Positions 24,298-32,290 of a stretch of DNA of 35,059 bases are shown one piece after another. Under the pieces are notes generated by a model. That model did no database searches. It had not been told where the DNA came from and saw only the letters and a program-made list of their open reading frames with translations. The position numbers and the translations under genes are program-made. The number at the start of each line of letters is the position of its first letter. The stretch's first letter is position 1. The stretch lies in NCBI GenBank assembly GCA_022360715.1, contig JAKSCG010000073.1:1-35059 (forward strand), read 5' to 3'. The DNA is from Halanaerobiales bacterium (GTDB lineage: Bacteria > Bacillota > Halanaerobiia > Halanaerobiales > DTU029).

Positions 24298-24327
24298 TTG
24301 ACATTGGTCTTTATTTTTTAATATAAT
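24298..24327 (+). promoter_or_regulatory. Strong promoter of the Moco-riboswitch operon
   Basis: TTGACA (24298-24303), an 18-base spacer and TATAAT (24322-24327). The start of transcription should fall about 24334, just before the aptamer's first stem at 24341. The 77 bases between the preceding gene and this promoter hold nothing else I can identify. Confidence 0.88.
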
Positions 24328-24340
24328 AATGTTAATTAAA

Positions 24341-24440
24341 AACTCCGAGCCTTTCATTCCTAAGGATCTTATTTTCTATGGAATATCGGCCGTTAGGGTA
24401 TTGGCGGAAACGGTGATGCCTCCCAGCTTGGAAAGGAGTT
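24341..24440 (+). promoter_or_regulatory. Moco (molybdenum cofactor)/Tuco-type riboswitch aptamer
   Basis: The RNA closes with AACTCC (24341-24346) pairing with GGAGTT (24435-24440). Inside are GAGC/GCTT (24347-24350 with 24426-24429), ATTCC/GGAAT (24356-24360 with 24380-24384) and CCGTTA/TGGCGG (24390-24395 with 24402-24407) followed by AAACGGTGAT. The sequence GCCTCCC (24418-24424) and the opening CTCCGAGCC are what I remember as hallmarks of the Moco RNA motif. The presence of mobB and Moco-domain-like proteins downstream agrees. Whether it is the molybdenum or tungsten cofactor subtype is not clear from inspection. Confidence 0.78.
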
Positions 24441-24453
24441 GCACAAGGTTATT

Positions 24454-24486
24454 AAAGTGCGTCTACTTTCAGTGGGCGCACTTTTT
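24454..24486 (+). terminator. Riboswitch-controlled intrinsic terminator
   Basis: AAAGTGCG (24454-24461) pairs perfectly with CGCACTTT (24477-24484), ending in a run of five T. GCAC at 24441-24444, just after the aptamer, can pair with the GTGC of the terminator arm, offering a switch. This fits ligand-dependent premature termination, so the operon would be shut off when cofactor is plentiful (inference). Confidence 0.78.
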
Positions 24487-24540
24487 GAATATATGAAGCA
24501 ATTTATCTTTATGGACAAAGGCTAATAGTGTTGAAAGGAG

Positions 24541-25071
24541 GTGTGTTTAATAAGAAAAGGACTTGTTATAATTATAATTTTCTTAATTGCTTTTGTAGTG
24601 CTACAAGTTTTGCAAATTGAAAAAATTCCGGATTATATCAGCGGATTGCTTTCCCCGGGCCAGCAGGTTGAAAGGCTAAAGCACTACGAAACCGGGCAGA
24701 TTAAAGAGGTCTATTTGGTAAAAGGTAATGGTAATCAGCAAGGTTTTATTCAAATAGTTAATTGCCCGGGTTATAATGGTTCAATTGAGATTTTGGTTAA
24801 GATTAATTTTCCGGAAAAAAAGCTGAGTGAGATCAGACTACTTAATCATAATGAAACACCTAATTATGGTGGATATATTGAAGAAGGCTGGTTCCTGGAA
24901 CGGTTTGTCGGTAAAAAGGCTGAACAGGAACTAGTACTGGTCAAACTGAGTCAGCAGAGCGCGGAGGAGGTTGTTGCCATTACAGGTGCAACCATCACCA
25001 GTCAGGGTGTATTGACCGGAGTTAATCAGGCTTTTGAAAATTTTAATAATTTCTTGCTAGATAGACTTTAA
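24541..25071 (+). CDS. Membrane-anchored FMN_bind-domain protein (RnfG/NqrC-like)
   Basis: First gene of the riboswitch operon. About 176 residues: one N-terminal membrane segment (residues 7-24), then an FMN_bind domain with CPGYNGSIEILVKI, IRLLNHNETPNYGGYIEE and VVAITGATITSQGV. In flavinylated relatives ApbE attaches FMN to the Thr of a D-x-x-[ST]-G-A-T motif; here T-G-A-T is present, but the usual Asp three residues earlier is Val, so covalent flavinylation is uncertain. Start is odd: the perfect AAAGGAGGTG overlaps GTG 24541, and the best-spaced in-frame codon is ATA at 24550. It is presumably an extracellular redox partner. Confidence 0.8.
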   Translation: MCLIRKGLVIIIIFLIAFVVLQVLQIEKIPDYISGLLSPGQQVERLKHYETGQIKEVYLVKGNGNQQGFIQIVNCPGYNGSIEILVKINFPEKKLSEIRLLNHNETPNYGGYIEEGWFLERFVGKKAEQELVLVKLSQQSAEEVVAITGATITSQGVLTGVNQAFENFNNFLLDRL

Positions 25072-25090
25072 CTTTATGGGGGTATGAAAA

Positions 25091-26164
25091 ATGAAAATGT
25101 TAAGATTGAGATTTTTGCCGGTGGTTTTACTAGTATTAATGATTACTGCTGTTAGTACGACAGTTTTAGCGGATTCGGATAGTATGATTATCAGTGGATT
25201 TGGAGAAGAAATTAAGATTACCGTGGCCGAAGTGAAAGAATTACCGGTAATTGAAAAAACAGTAGTCTCGGTCAATTCGGCCGGGAACAAAAAGGAATTT
25301 ACGATCACGGGAGCACTTTTGGCTGATCTCTTAAAGCAATACGGGAAATCCCAACAAAATTTGAAGGCGATTAGACTGATCGCCGGGGATGGTTATGAAA
25401 TCGACGTTGATCAATCAATTTTACAGCAGCGGGATATTATTATTGGTTATTTAATTGATGGGAAACCGATCAAAGAAAAATATCAACCCTTCCGGGTAGT
25501 AATTCCTGAGGAAAGGGCGATGTACTGGCTGAAAAATCTGATTAAAATCGAGGTTCTTGATCTGGCTGAGACAGTAGAGATCGATAAGGTATATTTTCTG
25601 GAAACAGCGATTTCGGAAGTAGAGCAGCTGGATTATACCTATTATGACAGTGTTGATCAAGCGGTCAAGGTTGCCGAGCTGATTGAAAAATTAGGTATTT
25701 CTACCGATTTGCGAACGGTCAGGATGTTAGCCAGTGACGGGTTGGACAAGGATGAGGAAAGGGATATCTTTGCTGGTGGCTATCTAAAAATAAGTGGTGA
25801 CTATGCTCCGATGTTTCTCTCCCCTGATCTGCCAAAGGGTATGTTTGTGAAAGACCTTTTATTGTTTAATTATGGTCAGAATGCGATTTGTTCTTTAAAT
25901 AACATGTTGAAGACCTTAAACCAGGTGACAGTTGGAGATATTACCGGGGTTAATATTGCTGATTTGTTGAGCCAGACGGGGTTAACTACTGCCGAGCAGT
26001 ATCGCTTTAAAGCTATTGACGGCTATGCGGTTGAAGTAGCTGCTACTGAGTTGGATAACGGGATTATCTATTTTGACCAAAAAGGGAGGGTCAGGACCTT
26101 TTTTGCTAATTTGCCAAAGAATTATTCGGTAAAATACCTATATTTAATTGAGGCAGTCCAATAA
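25091..26164 (+). CDS. Secreted protein with sulfite-oxidase-fold (Oxidored_molyb)-like modules
   Basis: A 357-residue protein with a clear signal peptide (residues 1-27, basic start, hydrophobic core, end VLA-DS). Residues ~35-155 follow the molybdopterin oxidoreductase-like fold: FTITGALLADLLKQYG, LKAIRLIAGDGYEIDVD, a KPIKEKYQPFRVVIPEE segment and WLKNLIKIEVL. Residues ~175-357 seem to repeat it (VNIADLLSQTGL, FKAIDGYAVEVAATEL ... VKYLYLIEAV). The N-terminal module has no Cys, and the cysteine that binds Mo in sulfite oxidases is not recognisable, so it is more likely a binding protein than an enzyme. It could bind a pterin cofactor outside the cell for the ECF transporter (inference). Confidence 0.78.
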   Translation: MKMLRLRFLPVVLLVLMITAVSTTVLADSDSMIISGFGEEIKITVAEVKELPVIEKTVVSVNSAGNKKEFTITGALLADLLKQYGKSQQNLKAIRLIAGDGYEIDVDQSILQQRDIIIGYLIDGKPIKEKYQPFRVVIPEERAMYWLKNLIKIEVLDLAETVEIDKVYFLETAISEVEQLDYTYYDSVDQAVKVAELIEKLGISTDLRTVRMLASDGLDKDEERDIFAGGYLKISGDYAPMFLSPDLPKGMFVKDLLLFNYGQNAICSLNNMLKTLNQVTVGDITGVNIADLLSQTGLTTAEQYRFKAIDGYAVEVAATELDNGIIYFDQKGRVRTFFANLPKNYSVKYLYLIEAVQ

Positions 26165-26190
26165 AAACGGAGAGGGGTAGGTTGTGTAAT

Positions 26191-26748
26191 ATGATCAAAA
26201 AAATGTTAGCTAGCTTTTCCATGTTTCATCTGGTAATTATCGCCTTGATGGCCGGGCTGGGCGTGGCGACCAAACCGCTTATTGTACCACTTGCCCATAT
26301 GATTACCGGTCCGTTGTATATTCCGGGGGGAGTTGTTGCCGGAGGATTTTATATGATGTGGATGGTGATCGGAGCCGGTCTGGTCGGGAAACGGGGTACT
26401 GCTACCTTAATAGCAGCAGTACAGGCGATCATGATGGTATCACTGGGGATTTTCGGTACACATGGACTGGTCAGTTTTTTTACCTATATTATCCCTGGTC
26501 TGGCGATTGATTTGATCCTGTTAATTTTACCAATCTCTACCCAAACCTTACTCGCCTGTTTTTTAGCAGGGATGGCTGCCAATCTAAGTGGTACTTTCCT
26601 GGTCAACCTGGTTTTTTTTCGATTACCCTTGGTACCTTTGCTATTAAGCCTCAGTAGTGCCGCACTTTCCGGGGGATTAGGTGGAATTGTAGCCTATCAG
26701 GTAGTTAATCGTTTCCAAAAGTTTGGCTTGAGCGGTGAAGCTGTTTAG
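26191..26748 (+). CDS. ECF transporter S component (YkoE-like)
   Basis: About 185 residues with six hydrophobic segments and no soluble domain, the size of ECF substrate-binding subunits. The IVPLAHMITGPLYIPGGVVAGGFYMMW region and the LVGKRGTATLIAAVQAIMM region resemble YkoE, the S component of a thiamine-precursor transporter, but the substrate specificity cannot be transferred. No TPP element is seen; the Moco-type RNA points to another ligand. ATG 26191 is used; TTG 26182 in the same frame is an alternative. The ATPases and T subunit follow at 28753-30821, separated by the phosphodiesterase and a small anchored protein. Confidence 0.82.
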   Translation: MIKKMLASFSMFHLVIIALMAGLGVATKPLIVPLAHMITGPLYIPGGVVAGGFYMMWMVIGAGLVGKRGTATLIAAVQAIMMVSLGIFGTHGLVSFFTYIIPGLAIDLILLILPISTQTLLACFLAGMAANLSGTFLVNLVFFRLPLVPLLLSLSSAALSGGLGGIVAYQVVNRFQKFGLSGEAV

Positions 26749-26756
26749 GAAGGAAG

Positions 26757-28247
26757 GTGTTTCTTATCTTGCGTTGGAAACAGATTGTTTTAGTTCTCAT
26801 ATTTTTTGTACTGGGATTAGGTACAGGCCTATTTTGGCCTGGTGGGGATAAATCTGGCTATATTCCTGCCCTGCGCTTAAGTGGTGATGTGGAAAAACCC
26901 CTGCAAGTTAAAGAATTAACTAAAAATAATCTGCTTAACATCGAGTACAGGGATTCCTCATACCGGGTGATTAGACTGAAAGAGTTGGTTGAGCGGGCGA
27001 TTCCCCGCTCAAACAATTATGAGCTGGTTTTAATTGGGGAAGACGGACTGACCGCCTGCCTGGCCGGGACTCAACTGGAAGAAAGTTATATTTACTATTC
27101 AACCAGTAGTGGTTGGTCTGCTTTAAACTTAAACCATCCAATTAGCAGTAATATTAAGCAACTGGAGCAGATCATCATCGTATCACTTGAACCTTTGCCG
27201 GACCGCACCCTGAGTTTTATCAGCCCGAACGAGAATATCAGGCAAATAAGCCCGGGCCAGTTGCTCAAAGGTGCGCTGACAGTCTATCCATACTTTGAAG
27301 GAGCATCAACATTTAAGGTAGAAGGGGTTAGTTACCGGACCGGTATTTACACCAGGCGGAGGCTCGTTAAGCCGGGCGAGCTGGTCGAGCGAGAGATAAA
27401 ACGTTCATTAATCATTGGTGCTAAAGGCGAAGAAATCCTTGACCAGGGAGGTTTTCTGGAGTTAGGGGACAATCAGGTTAACTATTTTAACCCGGCAAGC
27501 GGGAAAGGGCTCAAGAATGTCCGGGGGATTATCCTTGATGCTCCGGTCGCCCGTAACAGTGATGCTTTCCATGATGCCCTTTACTACCTGGAACAGGATC
27601 AACGGGTTTTAATTATTATGCTGGATGGATTTGGTTTTCATCAGTACAAATATGCGCTGGAAAATGGCTACGCCCCTTTTCTGGTCGGCACCAAGCGGGC
27701 CAATCGAGTCCTTTCGGTTTTCCAACCGGTTACCAATGCGGGATTGGCGGCTGTACTGACCGGAACCGGACCGGAGAATAACGGGGTTTATTCCCGCAAA
27801 CAAAAGGAACTGCAATCTGATGATATCTTTCAAAAAGCGGAAGAGATGGGTAAAAGGAGTGCCTATATCGAAGGGCATATTAAGATCTTAAATACTACGG
27901 TTGAACCTGTCCTTAATCCCGATGTTAATCAAAACGGGACTACCGATGATGAAATAATGGCGGCTGGTTTGGCAGCAATTGCCGAGGATTATGCCTTGCT
28001 CTTTGTCCATTTTCACGGGATCGATGATCAGGGTCATCACAGTGGCGACTTGAGTAGCAAGACGATGGAGATAGTCCGGGTTACTGATGCTTATCTACAG
28101 GAACTGGTTGCTGTCTGGCCGGGTCAGGTTATTATTACTGCTGATCACGGGATGCATCAGACCACAAGCGGGGGAAGCCACGGTATTGTTTGTTATCAGG
28201 ACCTTTTTGTTCCCTATCTTATTATTGAAGGAGGTAAACAGGGGTGA
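26757..28247 (+). CDS. Membrane-anchored phosphodiesterase/nucleotide pyrophosphatase with N-terminal Moco-domain-like region
   Basis: A 496-residue protein. Residues 5-25 form a membrane anchor. Residues ~35-145 (GDVEKPLQVKEL ... RVIRLKELVERAIP ... ELVLIGEDGLTACL) look like the sulfite-oxidase-type fold seen in the neighbouring proteins. Residues ~280-496 are an alkaline-phosphatase-superfamily catalytic domain: IIMLDGFGFHQY (metal Asp), QPVTNAGLAAVLTGTGPENNG (Thr nucleophile candidate), HFHGIDDQGHHSGD (Asp and His ligands), ITADHGM and SGGSHGI. The ligand set appears complete. It should cleave phosphoesters or pyrophosphates outside the cell. Start is GTG 26757 or, better spaced from AGGAAGG, TTG 26769. 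It overlaps the next gene by 4 bases. Confidence 0.85.
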   Translation: MFLILRWKQIVLVLIFFVLGLGTGLFWPGGDKSGYIPALRLSGDVEKPLQVKELTKNNLLNIEYRDSSYRVIRLKELVERAIPRSNNYELVLIGEDGLTACLAGTQLEESYIYYSTSSGWSALNLNHPISSNIKQLEQIIIVSLEPLPDRTLSFISPNENIRQISPGQLLKGALTVYPYFEGASTFKVEGVSYRTGIYTRRRLVKPGELVEREIKRSLIIGAKGEEILDQGGFLELGDNQVNYFNPASGKGLKNVRGIILDAPVARNSDAFHDALYYLEQDQRVLIIMLDGFGFHQYKYALENGYAPFLVGTKRANRVLSVFQPVTNAGLAAVLTGTGPENNGVYSRKQKELQSDDIFQKAEEMGKRSAYIEGHIKILNTTVEPVLNPDVNQNGTTDDEIMAAGLAAIAEDYALLFVHFHGIDDQGHHSGDLSSKTMEIVRVTDAYLQELVAVWPGQVIITADHGMHQTTSGGSHGIVCYQDLFVPYLIIEGGKQG

Positions 28248-28756
28248 AAAAGCCGATTATCATTACTTTAATTATCCTGGTTGTTATAGTCGGGATCACA
28301 GCTTATTTAAACCAGAAGGAGGTAGCTAATAAAGACCTTCTTCAGGAGAAAGCCTTAATCGCCATCAAAGCTGACGGCCAGGAAGTTGAGCAAATCAATT
28401 TTGCTTTTATCAAAGAGCAGGGGGAGCTGACCTTTAATAAAGAACTGGATACCAGTGAATCAGAACCTAGAGACCACAGCTATACTGGAGTGCCGTTTAA
28501 AAATATTATAACCGGGGTGGGAATCGAACTAGCGGACCGGCAGCAGATAATTGTCCGGGCAATCGACGGATATACGGTAGCTTTGACCAGTACGGAAGTA
28601 TTGGCCGATGATAATATTTATCTGGTCTATAAAAAGGACGGACAGTACTTAAAGGGAAAGAAGGAGGGGGGCTCAGGTCCCTACATGATTGTGATCAGAC
28701 GTGATCAATTTGGACAACGCTGGTGTAAGTTTGTTATTGAGGTAGAGGTAAAGTGA
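28244..28756 (+). CDS. Small anchored Moco-domain-like (Oxidored_molyb-type) protein
   Basis: A 170-residue protein with an N-terminal membrane segment (residues 4-21) and one extracellular domain. IIVRAIDGYTVALTSTEVLADDNIYLVYKKDG, GGSGPYMIVIRRD and FGQRWCKFVIEVEV follow the core of sulfite-oxidase-like domains (each stretch separated by a few residues). The single Cys near the C-terminus is not at the position expected for the Mo ligand, so it is probably a binder rather than an oxidase. GTG 28244 overlaps the preceding stop (GTGA), and its own TGA overlaps the GTG of ecfA1, indicating tight coupling to the transporter. Confidence 0.8.
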   Translation: MKKPIIITLIILVVIVGITAYLNQKEVANKDLLQEKALIAIKADGQEVEQINFAFIKEQGELTFNKELDTSESEPRDHSYTGVPFKNIITGVGIELADRQQIIVRAIDGYTVALTSTEVLADDNIYLVYKKDGQYLKGKKEGGSGPYMIVIRRDQFGQRWCKFVIEVEVK

Positions 28757-29442
28757 CGCTACCGATTATGGTCAAAGACCTTTCTTTCCGTTATCAGGGT
28801 AGTAAGAAAGAAATCCTGACGGGCATTAATATTACGGTTAATCAGGGAGAAATCCTGGCGATTGTTGGGTTAAGCGGTAGTGGGAAGTCAACCCTTTGCT
28901 ATTGTATCAGTGGGATTATCCCACACATTTACCAGGGTGAGCTGAGCGGAGAGGTTTTACTGAAAGGCAGTTCAACCCGCTCACTCAGTTTACCCCGGAT
29001 TGCTACTCAACTGGGGATTGTCTTTCAAAACCCGGAGACTCAGCTTTTTTTTCCGATCGTAGAAGATGAGATTGCTTTTGGACCGGAGAATTTGTGTCTG
29101 GCCAGGGAGGAGATTGGACAAAGATTGGCACAGGTTTTGGAGTTAACCGGGATGGAGCGGCAAAGGTATAGCAATCCCCAACTCCTTTCCGGTGGTCAGA
29201 AACAGCTGATTGCCCTATCTTCGGTTCTGAGCCTGCAACCGGATATCCTGGTATTTGATGAGGTCATGGCTCAACTTGATCCGGCGGGTAAAGAGCTGAT
29301 TAAAAATATGATTTTAAATTTAAAAGAGCAGGGTAAAACGGTGATCATGATTGATCATGATTGTGATAACCTGGTGATTGCGGATAAAGTAAAGATTTTA
29401 AAGCAGGGGAGGTTACTTGATTTTGATGGTACCTTTAGCTAA
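28753..29442 (+). CDS. ecfA1: ECF transporter ATPase A1
   Basis: A 229-residue ABC ATPase. Walker A GLSGSGKST (about residues 38-46), Q-loop GIVFQNPETQLFF, signature LLSGGQKQLIA, Walker B ILVFDEVMAQLDP and the switch DHDCDN are intact. The QNPETQ motif is typical of energy-coupling-factor ATPases. It forms a heterodimer with the next protein and powers import through the T and S subunits. GTG 28753 overlaps the previous gene's stop. Confidence 0.92.
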   Translation: MTLPIMVKDLSFRYQGSKKEILTGINITVNQGEILAIVGLSGSGKSTLCYCISGIIPHIYQGELSGEVLLKGSSTRSLSLPRIATQLGIVFQNPETQLFFPIVEDEIAFGPENLCLAREEIGQRLAQVLELTGMERQRYSNPQLLSGGQKQLIALSSVLSLQPDILVFDEVMAQLDPAGKELIKNMILNLKEQGKTVIMIDHDCDNLVIADKVKILKQGRLLDFDGTFS

Positions 29443-30100
29443 TTCAGGATTCCTTGAACTGATTGAAGTTGCTTTTTCTTATCCCGGTAATGAGTTTTCC
29501 CTGCAAGGGATTAATCAGCATTTTCAGCAAGGGGAATTTACTGCTATTATCGGGGCAAATGGCACTGGTAAAACAACTCTGGGGAAACTACTGGCCGGAA
29601 TAATTAAACCTGAGCAAGGACAGGTTTTAATTGCCGGCCGTGATAGCAGGGAAATCAGTCTTGGTCAGGTCGGTAAATTGATTGGGTATCTTTTTCAGCA
29701 ACCGGATCGACAATTATTTACTCCCACTGTCCGGGAAGAAATCGGCTTTGCCCTGGAGTTTAACGGTAGTTCTCCGGAGGTGATCAAGAAAAAGGTTAAT
29801 GATATGTTGGATATTTTTTCTCTCGCTGATTTAGCGGGGGCTGCCCCTTATCAGTTAAGTGCCGGAGAAAAACAACGGCTGGCCCTGGCCGCCCTGTTAG
29901 TCAATCAACCCCAATTCCTCATTCTTGACGAACCTACGACTGGTCTTGATCCGGTCCGCAAGCAAAAACTGGCTGAAGTCCTAAAAGAATTACAGGGAAA
30001 GGGGATCGGATTGGTTGTAATTAGTCACGATCTATCCTTTATCAGGAGTAATGCCGATCGGGTGCTCGTTATGGCAGGGGGTGGGCTAATTGCAGCTTGA
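29417..30100 (+). CDS. ecfA2: ECF transporter ATPase A2
   Basis: A 227-residue ABC ATPase with Walker A GANGTGKTT, Q-loop GYLFQQPDRQLFT, signature QLSAGEKQRLALA, Walker B FLILDEPTTGLDP and the switch VISHDLSF. Start is ambiguous: TTG 29417 or ATG 29426, with GGGGAGG at 29406-29412. Either overlaps the end of ecfA1 by 17-26 bases, and its own end overlaps ecfT, so the three subunits are translationally coupled. Confidence 0.92.
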   Translation: MILMVPLANSGFLELIEVAFSYPGNEFSLQGINQHFQQGEFTAIIGANGTGKTTLGKLLAGIIKPEQGQVLIAGRDSREISLGQVGKLIGYLFQQPDRQLFTPTVREEIGFALEFNGSSPEVIKKKVNDMLDIFSLADLAGAAPYQLSAGEKQRLALAALLVNQPQFLILDEPTTGLDPVRKQKLAEVLKELQGKGIGLVVISHDLSFIRSNADRVLVMAGGGLIAA

Positions 30101-30821
30101 TCCCAGGACAAAGTTGATCATGGTTTTTTCCCTTTCGACCCTGGCTGTTTTTGTCCAGGATAATCGGCTGCTGTTGTTAGTACTGATTGTATCGGTTTTA
30201 CTGGTAGCTTATTTTACGGCAGATTTCCGTTTTGTTAAAAAGGCCAGGAAGTTTATTATTCTGTTTTTAGGGATTGCGATTATCCAGAGCATTTTTGCCC
30301 CGGAAGGAGAGGTTTTGTTCAAGCTAGGTGACCTAACTCTGCTCACAGCCGGCGGTTTGCAAAAAGGGATCAGGGTAATTCTAAGGATGTTGATCATTAT
30401 CGTCTCGGCCGTAATAATGACCGGTTCCAGTGCCCGGGAGATTGTTCAGGGACTGATTCGGTGGAAGGTTCCCTTTGAGATTGCTTTTATGGTCTCACTG
30501 GCCACCCGTTTTTTACCGATTCTGGGCGAAGAAGCCAGAGATGTCTATATTGCTATTCAATTAAGGGGAATTGAACCGGAGAAGTTGCCGCTTAAACAGC
30601 GCATCAAATTATATTCATATTTATTAATGCCGGTTCTTACCGGAGTGATCGTTAAAGCCCGCGAATTATCTACTTCGATGGAAATGAGGGCTTTCCGGGC
30701 ATACCCCCGGCGAACCAGTTATTTAAGGCTGGAGTTTAAGCAACAGGATTACATTGTAATTATCCTCAGTTTATCCTTTTTAATGGTTATTTTATTACTT
30801 TATTTGTTAAATATTTGGTAG
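30090..30821 (+). CDS. ecfT: ECF transporter transmembrane subunit T
   Basis: A 243-residue membrane protein beginning QLDPRTKLI, typical of EcfT, with about five to six membrane segments. Two coupling-helix motifs are visible in the C-terminal half: IAIQLRGIEPEKLP and VKARELSTSMEMRAFRAYP, which dock on the two ATPases (the family's ARG-type motifs). Start TTG 30090 overlaps the ecfA2 stop by 11 bases. As the T subunit is encoded with a single S component, this seems to be a dedicated (group I) ECF transporter. Confidence 0.9.
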   Translation: MQLDPRTKLIMVFSLSTLAVFVQDNRLLLLVLIVSVLLVAYFTADFRFVKKARKFIILFLGIAIIQSIFAPEGEVLFKLGDLTLLTAGGLQKGIRVILRMLIIIVSAVIMTGSSAREIVQGLIRWKVPFEIAFMVSLATRFLPILGEEARDVYIAIQLRGIEPEKLPLKQRIKLYSYLLMPVLTGVIVKARELSTSMEMRAFRAYPRRTSYLRLEFKQQDYIVIILSLSFLMVILLLYLLNIW

Positions 30822-30834
30822 GAGTGATTAAGAA

Positions 30835-31593
30835 ATGAAGGTTTTTTCTGTTTTTGGGATTAGCGGTTCCGGTAAAACAACCACGATTGAGCGGATAATT
30901 GCGGAACTGAAAAAACGGAGGTATAGTGTCGGTTCGATTAAAGAGATCCATTTTGAGAAGTTTGCGATTGATCAGGAAGGGACTAATACTGATCGGCATA
31001 AAAAAGCCGGTGCGGAGTTAGTTACCGCCCGCGGCTATTATGAAACAGACATTCTCTATCCAACAAGATTATCACTGGAAGAGATCTTAAAGCATTATTA
31101 CTATGACTATGTGGTAGTTGAGGGGATTGCAGCAGGGAATTTTCCTAAAATAATAGCAGCGGCAGACGTTGAACAGATCGACCAAAGGCTGGATGATACT
31201 GTTTTTGCAATTGCCGGGAAGATAGCTAATCAAATGAGTGAATACAGGGGCTTACCGGTAATTAGCGGGATCGATCAAGCGGAAAAATTGGTCGACCTGA
31301 TTGAAGATAAGGTATTTGAGCAACTACCGGATTTCCCTAAGGAGTGCTGCTCAGCCTGTGGGTATAGTTGCCGTGAACTGGGAATAAATATTTTAAAAGG
31401 AAGAGCCAGCCGGGAAGATTGTGTACTTTCTTCATCGCGGATCAAACTATTCTTTGATAACCGGGAGGTTGAACTGGTTCCTTTTGTGCAGAATTTGCTG
31501 GAAAATGTTGTGACGGGAGTGGTGAGAGAACTAAAAGGGTATCAGCCCGGTTCTTCAATTGAAGTTAGGATTGGTTGCGATGAAAAGAGATAG
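30835..31593 (+). CDS. mobB: Molybdopterin-guanine dinucleotide biosynthesis protein MobB
   Basis: A 252-residue P-loop protein. FGISGSGKTTTIERII (residues 7-22) is the nucleotide-binding loop, and SIKEIHFEKFAIDQEGTNT followed by HKKAGAEL is the family-specific segment (GxDTxRHxxAGA). YDYVVVEGIAAGNFPKI contains the Walker B-like VVEG. The C-terminal part has a Cys-rich extension C-C-x2-C-G-x3-C then EDC ~20 residues later, which could hold an Fe-S cluster as in some anaerobe MobB proteins. MobB assists MobA in attaching GMP to molybdopterin. Its place in the operon ties the transporter to molybdenum or tungsten cofactor. ATG 30835 follows TAGGAGTG. Confidence 0.88.
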   Translation: MKVFSVFGISGSGKTTTIERIIAELKKRRYSVGSIKEIHFEKFAIDQEGTNTDRHKKAGAELVTARGYYETDILYPTRLSLEEILKHYYYDYVVVEGIAAGNFPKIIAAADVEQIDQRLDDTVFAIAGKIANQMSEYRGLPVISGIDQAEKLVDLIEDKVFEQLPDFPKECCSACGYSCRELGINILKGRASREDCVLSSSRIKLFFDNREVELVPFVQNLLENVVTGVVRELKGYQPGSSIEVRIGCDEKR

Positions 31594-32290
31594 ACCATCT
31601 GAGCAAAACAATCTTTTTTCCCACTATCAGCTGCGGAAAAAATTCACCAGTAAAAAAAATAAGGTTTATTTAATCAGGACGGTTACAACTGAAAGTGAGA
31701 GCAAAGATTATGTCCGGAAGGAAATGGGAAGCAAGCTGACCAAAGAAGCAGCGTTCTTATTAAAATTGCGGGAAAGGGGAGTAAGTGTACCGGAATTATA
31801 TCAATCCGGACCAGATTACCTAATTCTGGAGTATTTGCCCGGACCTACTTTGCTTGAGATTTACTGTCTGCTCGAATCAGAACAGGCTGACTTATCTGAA
31901 GTTAACCCTCTTTTTCAGGGATTGTCCAACTGGCTGCTTGATTTTTACCGGTCTTACGATTATAAATTTATTCTGGGTGATATCAATTTCAGGAACTTTA
32001 TAGTACTTGAAAAAAATAAAATTTTTGGACTGGATTTTGAAGATTGCCGAAAGGGGGCTGTTGAAGAAGATATCGGAAAGCTCTGTGCGTTCGGTCTGAG
32101 CTATCGACCGGTCTTTACAAACTGGAAATTGCGGGTAATAACTCTCCTTTTTCAAGACCTCACCGAAAAGCTATCATTAGACCGGGAATTAACCCGGTTA
32201 AAATTAAAAGAAGAGCTAGCAGAGATTGGTAAGAGAAGGAGATTATCTTTATCCAAAATCCAGCTGGAAGACTATTTGAAAAATTTTTGA
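31580..32290 (+). CDS. APH/Kdo-type small-molecule kinase
   Basis: A 236-residue protein kinase-like protein, last in the riboswitch operon. KDYVRKEMG supplies a candidate ATP-binding Lys, LTKEAAFLLKL the paired Glu, YLILEYLPGPTLLEI the hinge, FILGDINFRNFIV the catalytic Asp and Asn (the usual His before Asp is Leu-Gly), and IFGLDFEDCRKG the metal-binding Asp. The set looks active. Relatives include Kdo kinase, Bud32/RIO and APH enzymes. ATG 31580 overlaps the end of mobB by 14 bases. It may re-phosphorylate an imported, dephosphorylated compound (inference). Confidence 0.78.
   Translation: MKRDRPSEQNNLFSHYQLRKKFTSKKNKVYLIRTVTTESESKDYVRKEMGSKLTKEAAFLLKLRERGVSVPELYQSGPDYLILEYLPGPTLLEIYCLLESEQADLSEVNPLFQGLSNWLLDFYRSYDYKFILGDINFRNFIVLEKNKIFGLDFEDCRKGAVEEDIGKLCAFGLSYRPVFTNWKLRVITLLFQDLTEKLSLDRELTRLKLKEELAEIGKRRRLSLSKIQLEDYLKNF

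What the first reader, a model, noticed from the sequence alone, without database searches (positions are those of the whole stretch)
24298..32290. Moco-riboswitch-controlled ECF operon: candidate import and salvage system for molybdopterin or tungstopterin
Seen: a strong promoter, an RNA with Moco-type features and a terminator, then ten packed genes: FMN_bind protein, secreted Moco-domain-like protein, YkoE-like S component, anchored phosphodiesterase, second Moco-domain-like protein, EcfA1, EcfA2, EcfT, MobB, APH-type kinase. Known: ECF transporters import vitamins, usually in dephosphorylated form, with kinases restoring phosphate inside (riboflavin, thiamine precursors); MobB acts in molybdopterin dinucleotide synthesis. 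Inference: extracellular binding proteins capture pterin cofactor, the phosphodiesterase removes nucleotide or phosphate, ECF imports it, and the kinase and MobB rebuild it. I know of no described ECF transporter for molybdopterin.
Basis: partly seen in the sequence, partly recalled or inferred. Interest (0 to 1): 0.93.

Follow-up and report, generated by a model that had tools for sequence, protein, structure and literature searches.

The report
Importer for ready-made tungsten cofactor
This gene cluster, headed by an RNA of the molybdenum/tungsten-cofactor riboswitch family, likely imports that pterin cofactor ready-made; 14 of 47 searched genomes that carry its core transporter gene show no moaC gene for making the cofactor, yet encode enzymes of families that need it.

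Summary
24331-24454 matches RF01055 (70.2 bits, cut-off 36) in the P3-lacking, tungsten-type form; ten packed genes follow. Eight core genes lie together in 32 of 80 named loci, in the same order from S onward in all 32; an RF01055-type RNA lies upstream in 53 of 80.

New evidence for cofactor import: of 80 genomes (47 with the S component, 33 without, my choice), 24 lack MoaC. All 14 of these with S encode AOR or a molybdopterin oxidoreductase; of the 10 without S, none does if two NuoG-like proteins are set aside (Fisher p 5e-7; 6e-5 if counted). Twelve of the 14 also lack MoeA, 11 keep a MobA-like gene, and RF01055 is found in 13 of 14 against 0 of 10. One of the 14 is a complete chromosome. 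The imported form therefore likely bears the metal already and lacks the nucleotide.

The S component has YkoE's fold but not its thiamine contacts. The PF00174 proteins weakly resemble the pterin-binding protein PruR. Substrate and single steps are untested.

The parts
24298..24327 (+). sigma-70-type promoter, 12 of 12 consensus positions
24331..24454 (+). Moco/Tuco riboswitch aptamer, P3-lacking (tungsten-type) form
   Evidence: RF01055, 70.2 bits, E 3.7e-15
24454..24486 (+). 14-bp hairpin followed by U run, likely intrinsic terminator of the riboswitch
   Evidence: fold -22 kcal/mol, z -3.75 for 24431-24500; not listed by the terminator scan
24541..25071 (+). FMN_bind protein with N-terminal membrane stretch and TGAT flavinylation-type motif
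   Evidence: PF04205 56.7 bits; T148-G-A-T151 at 96-100% of 24 sequences
25091..26164 (+). secreted PF00174 (SUOX-fold) protein; lipobox cysteine in many relatives; predicted pterin capture protein
   Evidence: PF00174 37.5 bits; 26 of 26 relatives match; alignment A5
26182..26748 (+). ECF S component, PF09819 (YkoE-type)
   Evidence: AF2 pLDDT 83; best PDB match YkoE 5edl, TM 0.71
26757..28247 (+). membrane-anchored NPP-type phosphodiesterase; N-terminal half resembles the PF00174 proteins
28244..28756 (+). membrane-anchored small PF00174 protein
   Evidence: PF00174 25.9 bits; 28 of 28 relatives match; PDB 7kom E 7e-4
28753..29442 (+). ECF ATPase EcfA1
   Evidence: TIGR04520 216.9 bits, below that model's cut-off 315
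29417..30100 (+). ECF ATPase EcfA2
   Evidence: TIGR04520 189.9 bits, below that model's cut-off 315
30090..30821 (+). ECF T component (CbiQ family)
   Evidence: PF02361 105.1 bits
30835..31593 (+). MobB GTPase with C-terminal four-cysteine motif (Fe-S type)
   Evidence: TIGR00176 82.7 bits, cut-off 76.2; P-loop and C172, C175, C179, C196 conserved
31559..32290 (+). APH-family kinase
   Evidence: PF01636 33.3 bits; K54, E63, D141, N146, D159 at 97-100% of 36 sequences

Best explanation
This operon is predicted to be an ECF-type import and salvage system for the finished pterin cofactor of tungsten (and probably molybdenum) enzymes. Shown by sequence: a P3-lacking RF01055 leader, a complete ECF transporter (S, two ATPases, T), two PF00174 proteins, an NPP-type phosphodiesterase, MobB, a kinase and an FMN_bind protein in one packed row, conserved as a unit in many anaerobes; and, in the genomes searched, the system in every genome that lacks MoaC but encodes AOR or canonical molybdopterin-oxidoreductase families. 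Inferred: (1) when the cofactor is scarce, the leader lets transcription through; when it is plentiful, the hairpin at 24454-24486 stops it. (2) The PF00174 proteins hold the cofactor that leaks from other cells, and the flavinylated protein keeps it reduced. (3) The phosphodiesterase clips off the nucleotide (GMP or CMP) and perhaps the phosphate. (4) The S component with EcfA1A2T carries the nucleotide-free, still metal-bearing pterin inside. (5) The kinase restores the phosphate if it was lost, and MobB with a MobA encoded elsewhere (in this genome beside the formate dehydrogenase) re-adds GMP for formate dehydrogenase, while AOR takes the cofactor without nucleotide. I put about 0.85 on 'imports a molybdopterin-type cofactor' and less on the metal-bearing form and the step order; the number below is for the whole statement.
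For: Riboswitch; RF01055 upstream in 22 of 24 loci scanned with Rfam (the two others hold under 400 bases before S) and by the home-made model R1 in 53 of 80. Unit: eight core genes in 32 of 80 loci, order from S onward kept in 32 of 32. Host test: MoaC-lacking genomes with S encode AOR or a canonical molybdopterin oxidoreductase in 14 of 14, without S in 0 of 10 (2 of 10 if the NuoG-like proteins count); Fisher p 5e-7 (6e-5); collapsed to 10 lineages each, 1e-5. MoaA agrees with MoaC in 30 of 30 distinct genomes (21 with both, 9 with neither). MoeA missing in 12 of 14, MobA-like gene (E <= 1e-19) kept in 11 of 14, against 0 of 10 in the S-less set. RF01055 found in 13 of 14 against 0 of 10; in five of the 13 (G013, G040, G051, G065, G088) the only RF01055 found sits before this operon, so the aptamer is kept where its ligand does not seem to be made. 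Complete chromosome CP118523 (G073): whole operon, RF01055, Sec-type formate dehydrogenase, MobA-like, FdhD, no MoaA/MoaC/MoeA/MoaE over cut-off. Own genome: the second RF01055 stands before a ferredoxin-like protein and an AOR. Anaerovirgula locus L026: the same RNA type also stands before a Tup-like tungstate ABC transporter right behind the operon. S fused to a PF00174 domain in a divergent relative (L123; PF00174 22.2 bits, just under cut-off).
Against: No experiment. Auxotrophy is read from missing genes, mostly in draft genomes (told completeness of seven of the 14: 57, 80, 89, 91, 92, 97, 97%; not told for the rest). 33 of 47 S-bearing genomes have MoaC, so the system does not mark auxotrophs only. 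Two of the 14 (G086, G088) have MoeA; three (G079, G086, G096) lack a clear MobA; no MobA-like match in any of 47 genomes passes the curated cut-off. 14 of the 67 loci with a hit or with at least 5 kb upstream have no RF01055-type RNA upstream of S. The phosphodiesterase is near S in 48, the kinase in 37 and FMN_bind in 20 of 80 loci (some contigs are cut), so these steps cannot be needed everywhere. The best solved relatives of the small PF00174 protein match weakly (7kom E 7e-4; two unrelated viral chains at 0.03), and the PruR site is said to be too small for Moco (passage of PMC13259868). My S-less genomes were chosen, not drawn at random.
Confidence: 0.6

Rival explanations
1. The ECF system imports metal-free molybdopterin or an earlier intermediate (dephospho-MPT or cPMP), and tungstate from the Tup transporter is inserted inside.
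For: The operon kinase and MobB fit a phosphate-poor pterin. Two of 14 MoaC-less carriers keep MoeA. A Tup-like ABC transporter under the same RNA type stands behind the operon in L026.
Against: 12 of 14 MoaC-less carriers have no MoeA over cut-off, so metal insertion would need an unknown enzyme.
Confidence: 0.25
2. The ECF system imports tungstate, molybdate or a chelate of them, i.e. metal and not pterin.
For: The riboswitch class is also known before Mo/W transporters (PMC2408646 passages); one locus (L022) carries DUF364/DUF4213 'heavy-metal chelation' and a siderophore-type binding protein inside the cluster.
Against: Metal alone would not help hosts without MoaA and MoaC; PF00174, NPP, MobB and kinase parts fit an organic cofactor; the S component has no CbiN/NikN-like metal partner in the operon.
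Confidence: 0.05
3. It is a thiamine/HMP-type vitamin importer of the YkoE family.
For: PF09819; AF2 model closest to YkoE (TM 0.71, 21% identity).
Against: Thiamine contacts Y46, W49, E77, Q95, D131 of YkoE stand at G54, Y57, M/V/I85, P105, V/S/T141 in 23 of 23 S sequences of the family; W to Y alone is not telling, since the YkoE-like paralog L124 has Y too. RF01055 and no TPP riboswitch at gathering score.
Confidence: 0.03
4. The missing biosynthesis genes are assembly gaps or replaced by unknown enzymes; the operon serves repair or recycling of the cell's own leaked cofactor.
For: Most of the 14 are drafts; most carriers of S have MoaC (33 of 47).
Against: G073 is a complete chromosome; MoaA and MoaC are missing together in 9 of 9; the S-less genomes without MoaC have lost the enzymes too (10 of 10 if NuoG-like proteins are set aside).
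Confidence: 0.07

Closest known systems
YkoEDC thiamine/HMP ECF transporter (YkoE, PDB 5edl)
   Same: PF09819 S component, S/A/T genes in one operon under a cofactor riboswitch, same fold
   Different: RF01055 leader, two separate ATPase genes instead of a fused one, thiamine contacts not kept, added PF00174, NPP, MobB and kinase genes
PruR periplasmic pterin-binding proteins (PDB 7kos, 7kom, 7kp2)
   Same: small secreted SUOX-like PF00174 domain without the Mo-ligating cysteine; N-D-Y of 7kom aligns with D108-G-Y110
   Different: weak sequence match; PruR partners are DcpA-type regulators and its site is said to be too small for Moco (PMC13259868 passages)
Moco/Tuco riboswitch (RF01055) regulons
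   Same: same RNA family; P3-lacking class linked with tungsten use (PMC2408646 passages)
   Different: in the passages I saw, regulons hold synthesis genes, metal transporters and enzymes; no cofactor importer is named (PMC2408646, PMC3766115)
TupABC / ModABC / WtpABC oxyanion transporters
   Same: serve the same enzymes and share the riboswitch type (L026)
   Different: import metal oxyanion, not a pterin

Membership tests
RF01055 Moco/Tuco riboswitch | covariance-model score over the gathering cut-off | tested here: met
   70.2 bits, cut-off 36
RF01055 Moco/Tuco riboswitch | P3-lacking (tungsten-type) architecture | tested here: met
   P3 positions deleted in the window and in 14 of the 15 RF01055 alignments printed; only L084 has P3
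RF01055 Moco/Tuco riboswitch | binds Moco or Tuco and switches expression | not testable with these tools
   needs reporter or probing work
ECF transporter (group I layout) | S component, T component and ATPases in one operon | tested here: met
   PF09819, PF02361, two ABC_tran
YkoE thiamine/HMP transporter | thiamine-contact residues of YkoE | tested here: not met
   none of five identical in 23 sequences (contacts from passages of PMC5037267)
YkoE thiamine/HMP transporter | S-component fold | tested here: met
   5edl TM 0.71
SUOX-type Mo oxidoreductase | conserved Mo-ligating cysteine in PF00174 | tested here: inconclusive
   no cysteine among window residues kept in 85% or more of 45 and 63 sequences; a cysteine beside W160 is the majority residue in the small protein; the ligand position was not mapped by structure
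PruR pterin-binding protein | PF00174 domain, secreted, with pterin-site N/D and Y | tested here: inconclusive
   D100-G-Y102 and D108-G-Y110 conserved; 7kom E 7e-4; no fold model of these proteins was made
NPP phosphodiesterase | nucleophile Thr and metal-ligand Asp/His set | tested here: met
   D290, T326, D423, H427, D463, H464, H475 at 89-100% of 47 (roles recalled from NPP enzymes)
MobB | curated model score | tested here: met
   TIGR00176 82.7 over 76.2 bits
ApbE-flavinylated FMN_bind protein | flavinylation motif | tested here: met
   TGAT in 24 sequences at 96-100%; ApbE itself is not in the window operon but is in L065
Cofactor importer | transports Mo/W-pterin | not testable with these tools
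   needs uptake or binding assay

The most novel reading that the evidence does not exclude
This is the first transporter for the complete, metal-loaded pterin cofactor of tungsten/molybdenum enzymes, and some anaerobes have given up making that cofactor altogether: they live on cofactor released by neighbours, strip its nucleotide outside, import the metal-pterin core by an ECF transporter and re-attach the nucleotide inside, all under an RNA that senses the imported cofactor.
Probability: 0.6. Interest if true: 0.95.

Novelty: new variant of a known kind. Interest (0 to 1): 0.9.

Why it matters
Mo/W-pterin cofactor is generally held to be made by each cell for itself because it is large and falls apart outside proteins (general knowledge, not from a call). 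A dedicated importer, and bacteria that keep formate dehydrogenase and AOR without moaA/moaC/moeA, would add this cofactor to the shared goods of anaerobic communities, explain why such strains resist cultivation, and give a direct handle on extracellular cofactor traffic. It may also explain an odd case in Regulski 2008, where two P3-lacking RNAs of Syntrophomonas wolfei stand before putative 'sulphite oxidase' genes (passage): these may be PF00174 proteins of this system (my inference, not tested).

Tried and rejected
Considered and set aside: metal-only transport, thiamine/HMP transport, assembly gaps (see rivals). MoaE was no help: only 4 of 47 genomes match, with or without MoaC, so MPT-synthase loss cannot be judged. 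MobA by TIGR02665 gives no match over the curated cut-off in 47 genomes, so I used E <= 1e-19 as 'MobA-like'. The A1 profile found no PDB chain at E <= 10. No relative of S in viral contigs. In one search my YkoE numbering was off; one search corrects it. Six weak S matches (G115, G122, G148, G181, G192, G209; E 1e-7 to 1e-25) were left out of both the S+ and the S- set. The 33 S- genomes were picked by me before MoaC was searched: 16 of the 51 S-less genomes and 17 of the 124. MoeA, MoaE and MobA were searched in 47 of the 80 genomes, all 24 MoaC-less ones among them. In one search the first look was capped (88 candidates scored), so a missed RNA is possible in G086, G004, G012, G059 and G098. 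VIA-align rows for the phosphodiesterase cover residues 279-493 only; the N-terminal half was not folded alone. Literature: seven papers opened, passages only (PMC2408646, PMC3766115, PMC8238504, PMC10979944, PMC13119186, PMC5037267, PMC13259868), the others seen as search listings with the starts of abstracts. No Mo/W-pterin importer showed in searches of that open-licence library; subscription papers are not held.
Full report
Observation. The window holds one Rfam match at gathering score: RF01055, 24331-24454 (+), 70.2 bits against 36. P3 is missing, the class that Regulski 2008 links with tungsten cofactor (passages). Promoter and hairpin stand where a riboswitch needs them, though the simple terminator scan did not list the hairpin. 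Ten genes follow from 24541 to 32290 with overlaps or short gaps: FMN_bind, PF00174, PF09819, PF01663 phosphodiesterase, PF00174, two ECF-type ATPases, CbiQ, MobB and APH.

Conservation. A scan of GTDB genomes with the S alignment A1 confirmed 229 stretches, of which the best 80 were kept as loci L018-L097. They come from Halanaerobiales, many Clostridia, Pelotomaculum, Syntrophomonas and records titled Dehalococcoidia, Actinomycetota, Thermoleophilia and Sumerlaeota. MocoD1 (first PF00174 gene), S, phosphodiesterase, second PF00174, both ATPases, T and MobB lie together in 32 of 80; from S onward their order is the window's in 32 of 32; all ten types are present in 14 of 80 (in L028 the kinase hit lies elsewhere in the locus). 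Near S, over the 80: A1 66, A2 68, T 69, second PF00174 61, MobB 54, phosphodiesterase 48, first PF00174 48, kinase 37, FMN_bind 20; several contigs are cut.

Riboswitch across loci. Rfam found RF01055 before the operon in 6 of 8 loci (L018 and L021 hold under 400 bases before S), 8 of 8 (L062 cut at the 5' end) and 8 of 8. A covariance model from 8 of these RNAs (R1) finds one upstream on the same strand in 53 of 80 loci (E at most 7e-6); of the 27 others, 13 hold under 5 kb upstream. L090 has three and L028, L089 two RNAs in a row before the operon; L053 has two close together and a third farther up. Of the 15 RF01055 alignments printed, only L084 has P3.

Host test. I asked whether carriers can make the cofactor. 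MoaA (TIGR02666): 34 handles, 30 distinct genomes, 21 over the cut-off, 9 not. MoaC (PF01967) over 80 genomes, 47 with S and 33 without: 56 have it. The 24 without are 14 S+ (G000, G013, G016, G040, G047, G049, G051, G065, G073, G076, G079, G086, G088, G096) and 10 S- (G004, G012, G014, G053, G059, G091, G098, G103, G105, G110). AOR (PF02730) is in 13 of the 14 and 0 of the 10; PF00384 is in 14 of 14 and 2 of 10. The two S- hits (G105, G110) are 1,090- and 1,189-residue NuoG/glutamate-synthase-like fusions without the dinucleotide-binding domain PF01568; the only PF00384 hit of G096 is of similar length (1178 residues), but G096 has six AOR matches. So 14 of 14 against 0 of 10 (p 5e-7), 2 of 10 if those fusions count (p 6e-5), and 1e-5 after collapsing to 10 lineages each. 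The full table: S+ MoaC- enzyme+ 14, S+ MoaC+ enzyme+ 33; S- MoaC+ enzyme+ 22, S- MoaC+ enzyme- 1, S- MoaC- enzyme- 8, S- MoaC- enzyme+ 2. The S- genomes were picked by me before MoaC was searched, not at random; genomes in one genus are not independent.

What form is imported. MoeA (PF03453), the metal-inserting enzyme, is missing over cut-off in 12 of the 14 (present in G086 and G088; G040 has a match below cut-off) and in 10 of 10 S- MoaC- genomes. G042 has MoaC but no MoeA. A MobA-like gene (TIGR02665, E <= 1e-19, never over the curated cut-off) is in 11 of the 14 and 0 of the 10; in the own genome, G065 and G073 it sits beside the formate dehydrogenase. This brackets the entry point: after metal insertion and before nucleotide attachment. 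G073, the complete chromosome CP118523, has the whole operon with RF01055, a formate dehydrogenase with in-frame TGA whose downstream piece alone passes TIGR01591, MobA-like and FdhD genes, one AOR match, and none of MoaA, MoaC, MoeA or MoaE over cut-off.

The aptamer is kept without synthesis. RF01055 is found in 13 of the 14 and in 0 of the 10 (first look capped in some genomes; in G086 the operon contig begins inside the first PF00174 gene). In G013, G040, G051, G065 and G088 the only RF01055 found is the one before this operon. In the window's own genome the second RF01055 (44.3 bits) stands before a ferredoxin-like gene and an AOR.

Reading. A cofactor riboswitch, an ECF transporter, pterin-fold capture proteins, a nucleotide-clipping enzyme and MobB in one unit, kept in the cells that lack MoaC and usually MoeA but not Mo/W enzymes, is best explained by uptake of ready-made metal-pterin. 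Uptake itself, the ligand of each protein and the order of steps are inference.

Noticed in passing
L119, L120, L121, L125 (S-like genes): A second group of distant PF09819-like S components stands beside NTPase_1 (THEP1), MobA/MocA-like nucleotidyltransferase and, in L121, xanthine-dehydrogenase-type genes (recalled from the sequence), with no Rfam match: possibly importers of a cytidine-type cofactor.
   Followed up: partly
L122:3902-4572: A distant S component with its own RF01055 (58.2 bits) directly upstream and a molybdopterin-oxidoreductase-like ORF nearby on the other strand.
   Followed up: no
L123:3572-4708: S component and PF00174 domain on one protein chain.
   Followed up: partly
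L090:8192-8658; also L089, L028, L053: Two or three RF01055-type aptamers in tandem before the operon; L090's three and L053's two confirmed by Rfam.
   Followed up: no
L022:4510-9955: DUF364/DUF4213 'heavy-metal chelation' gene, siderophore-type ABC genes and a TiaS-like gene sit between the first PF00174 gene and S.
   Followed up: partly
L026:16155-18784 (- strand): Tup-like ABC transporter with its own P3-lacking RF01055 directly behind the operon.
   Followed up: partly
G042: Carrier with MoaC and MoaA but no MoeA match and no AOR; two PF00384 matches.
   Followed up: no
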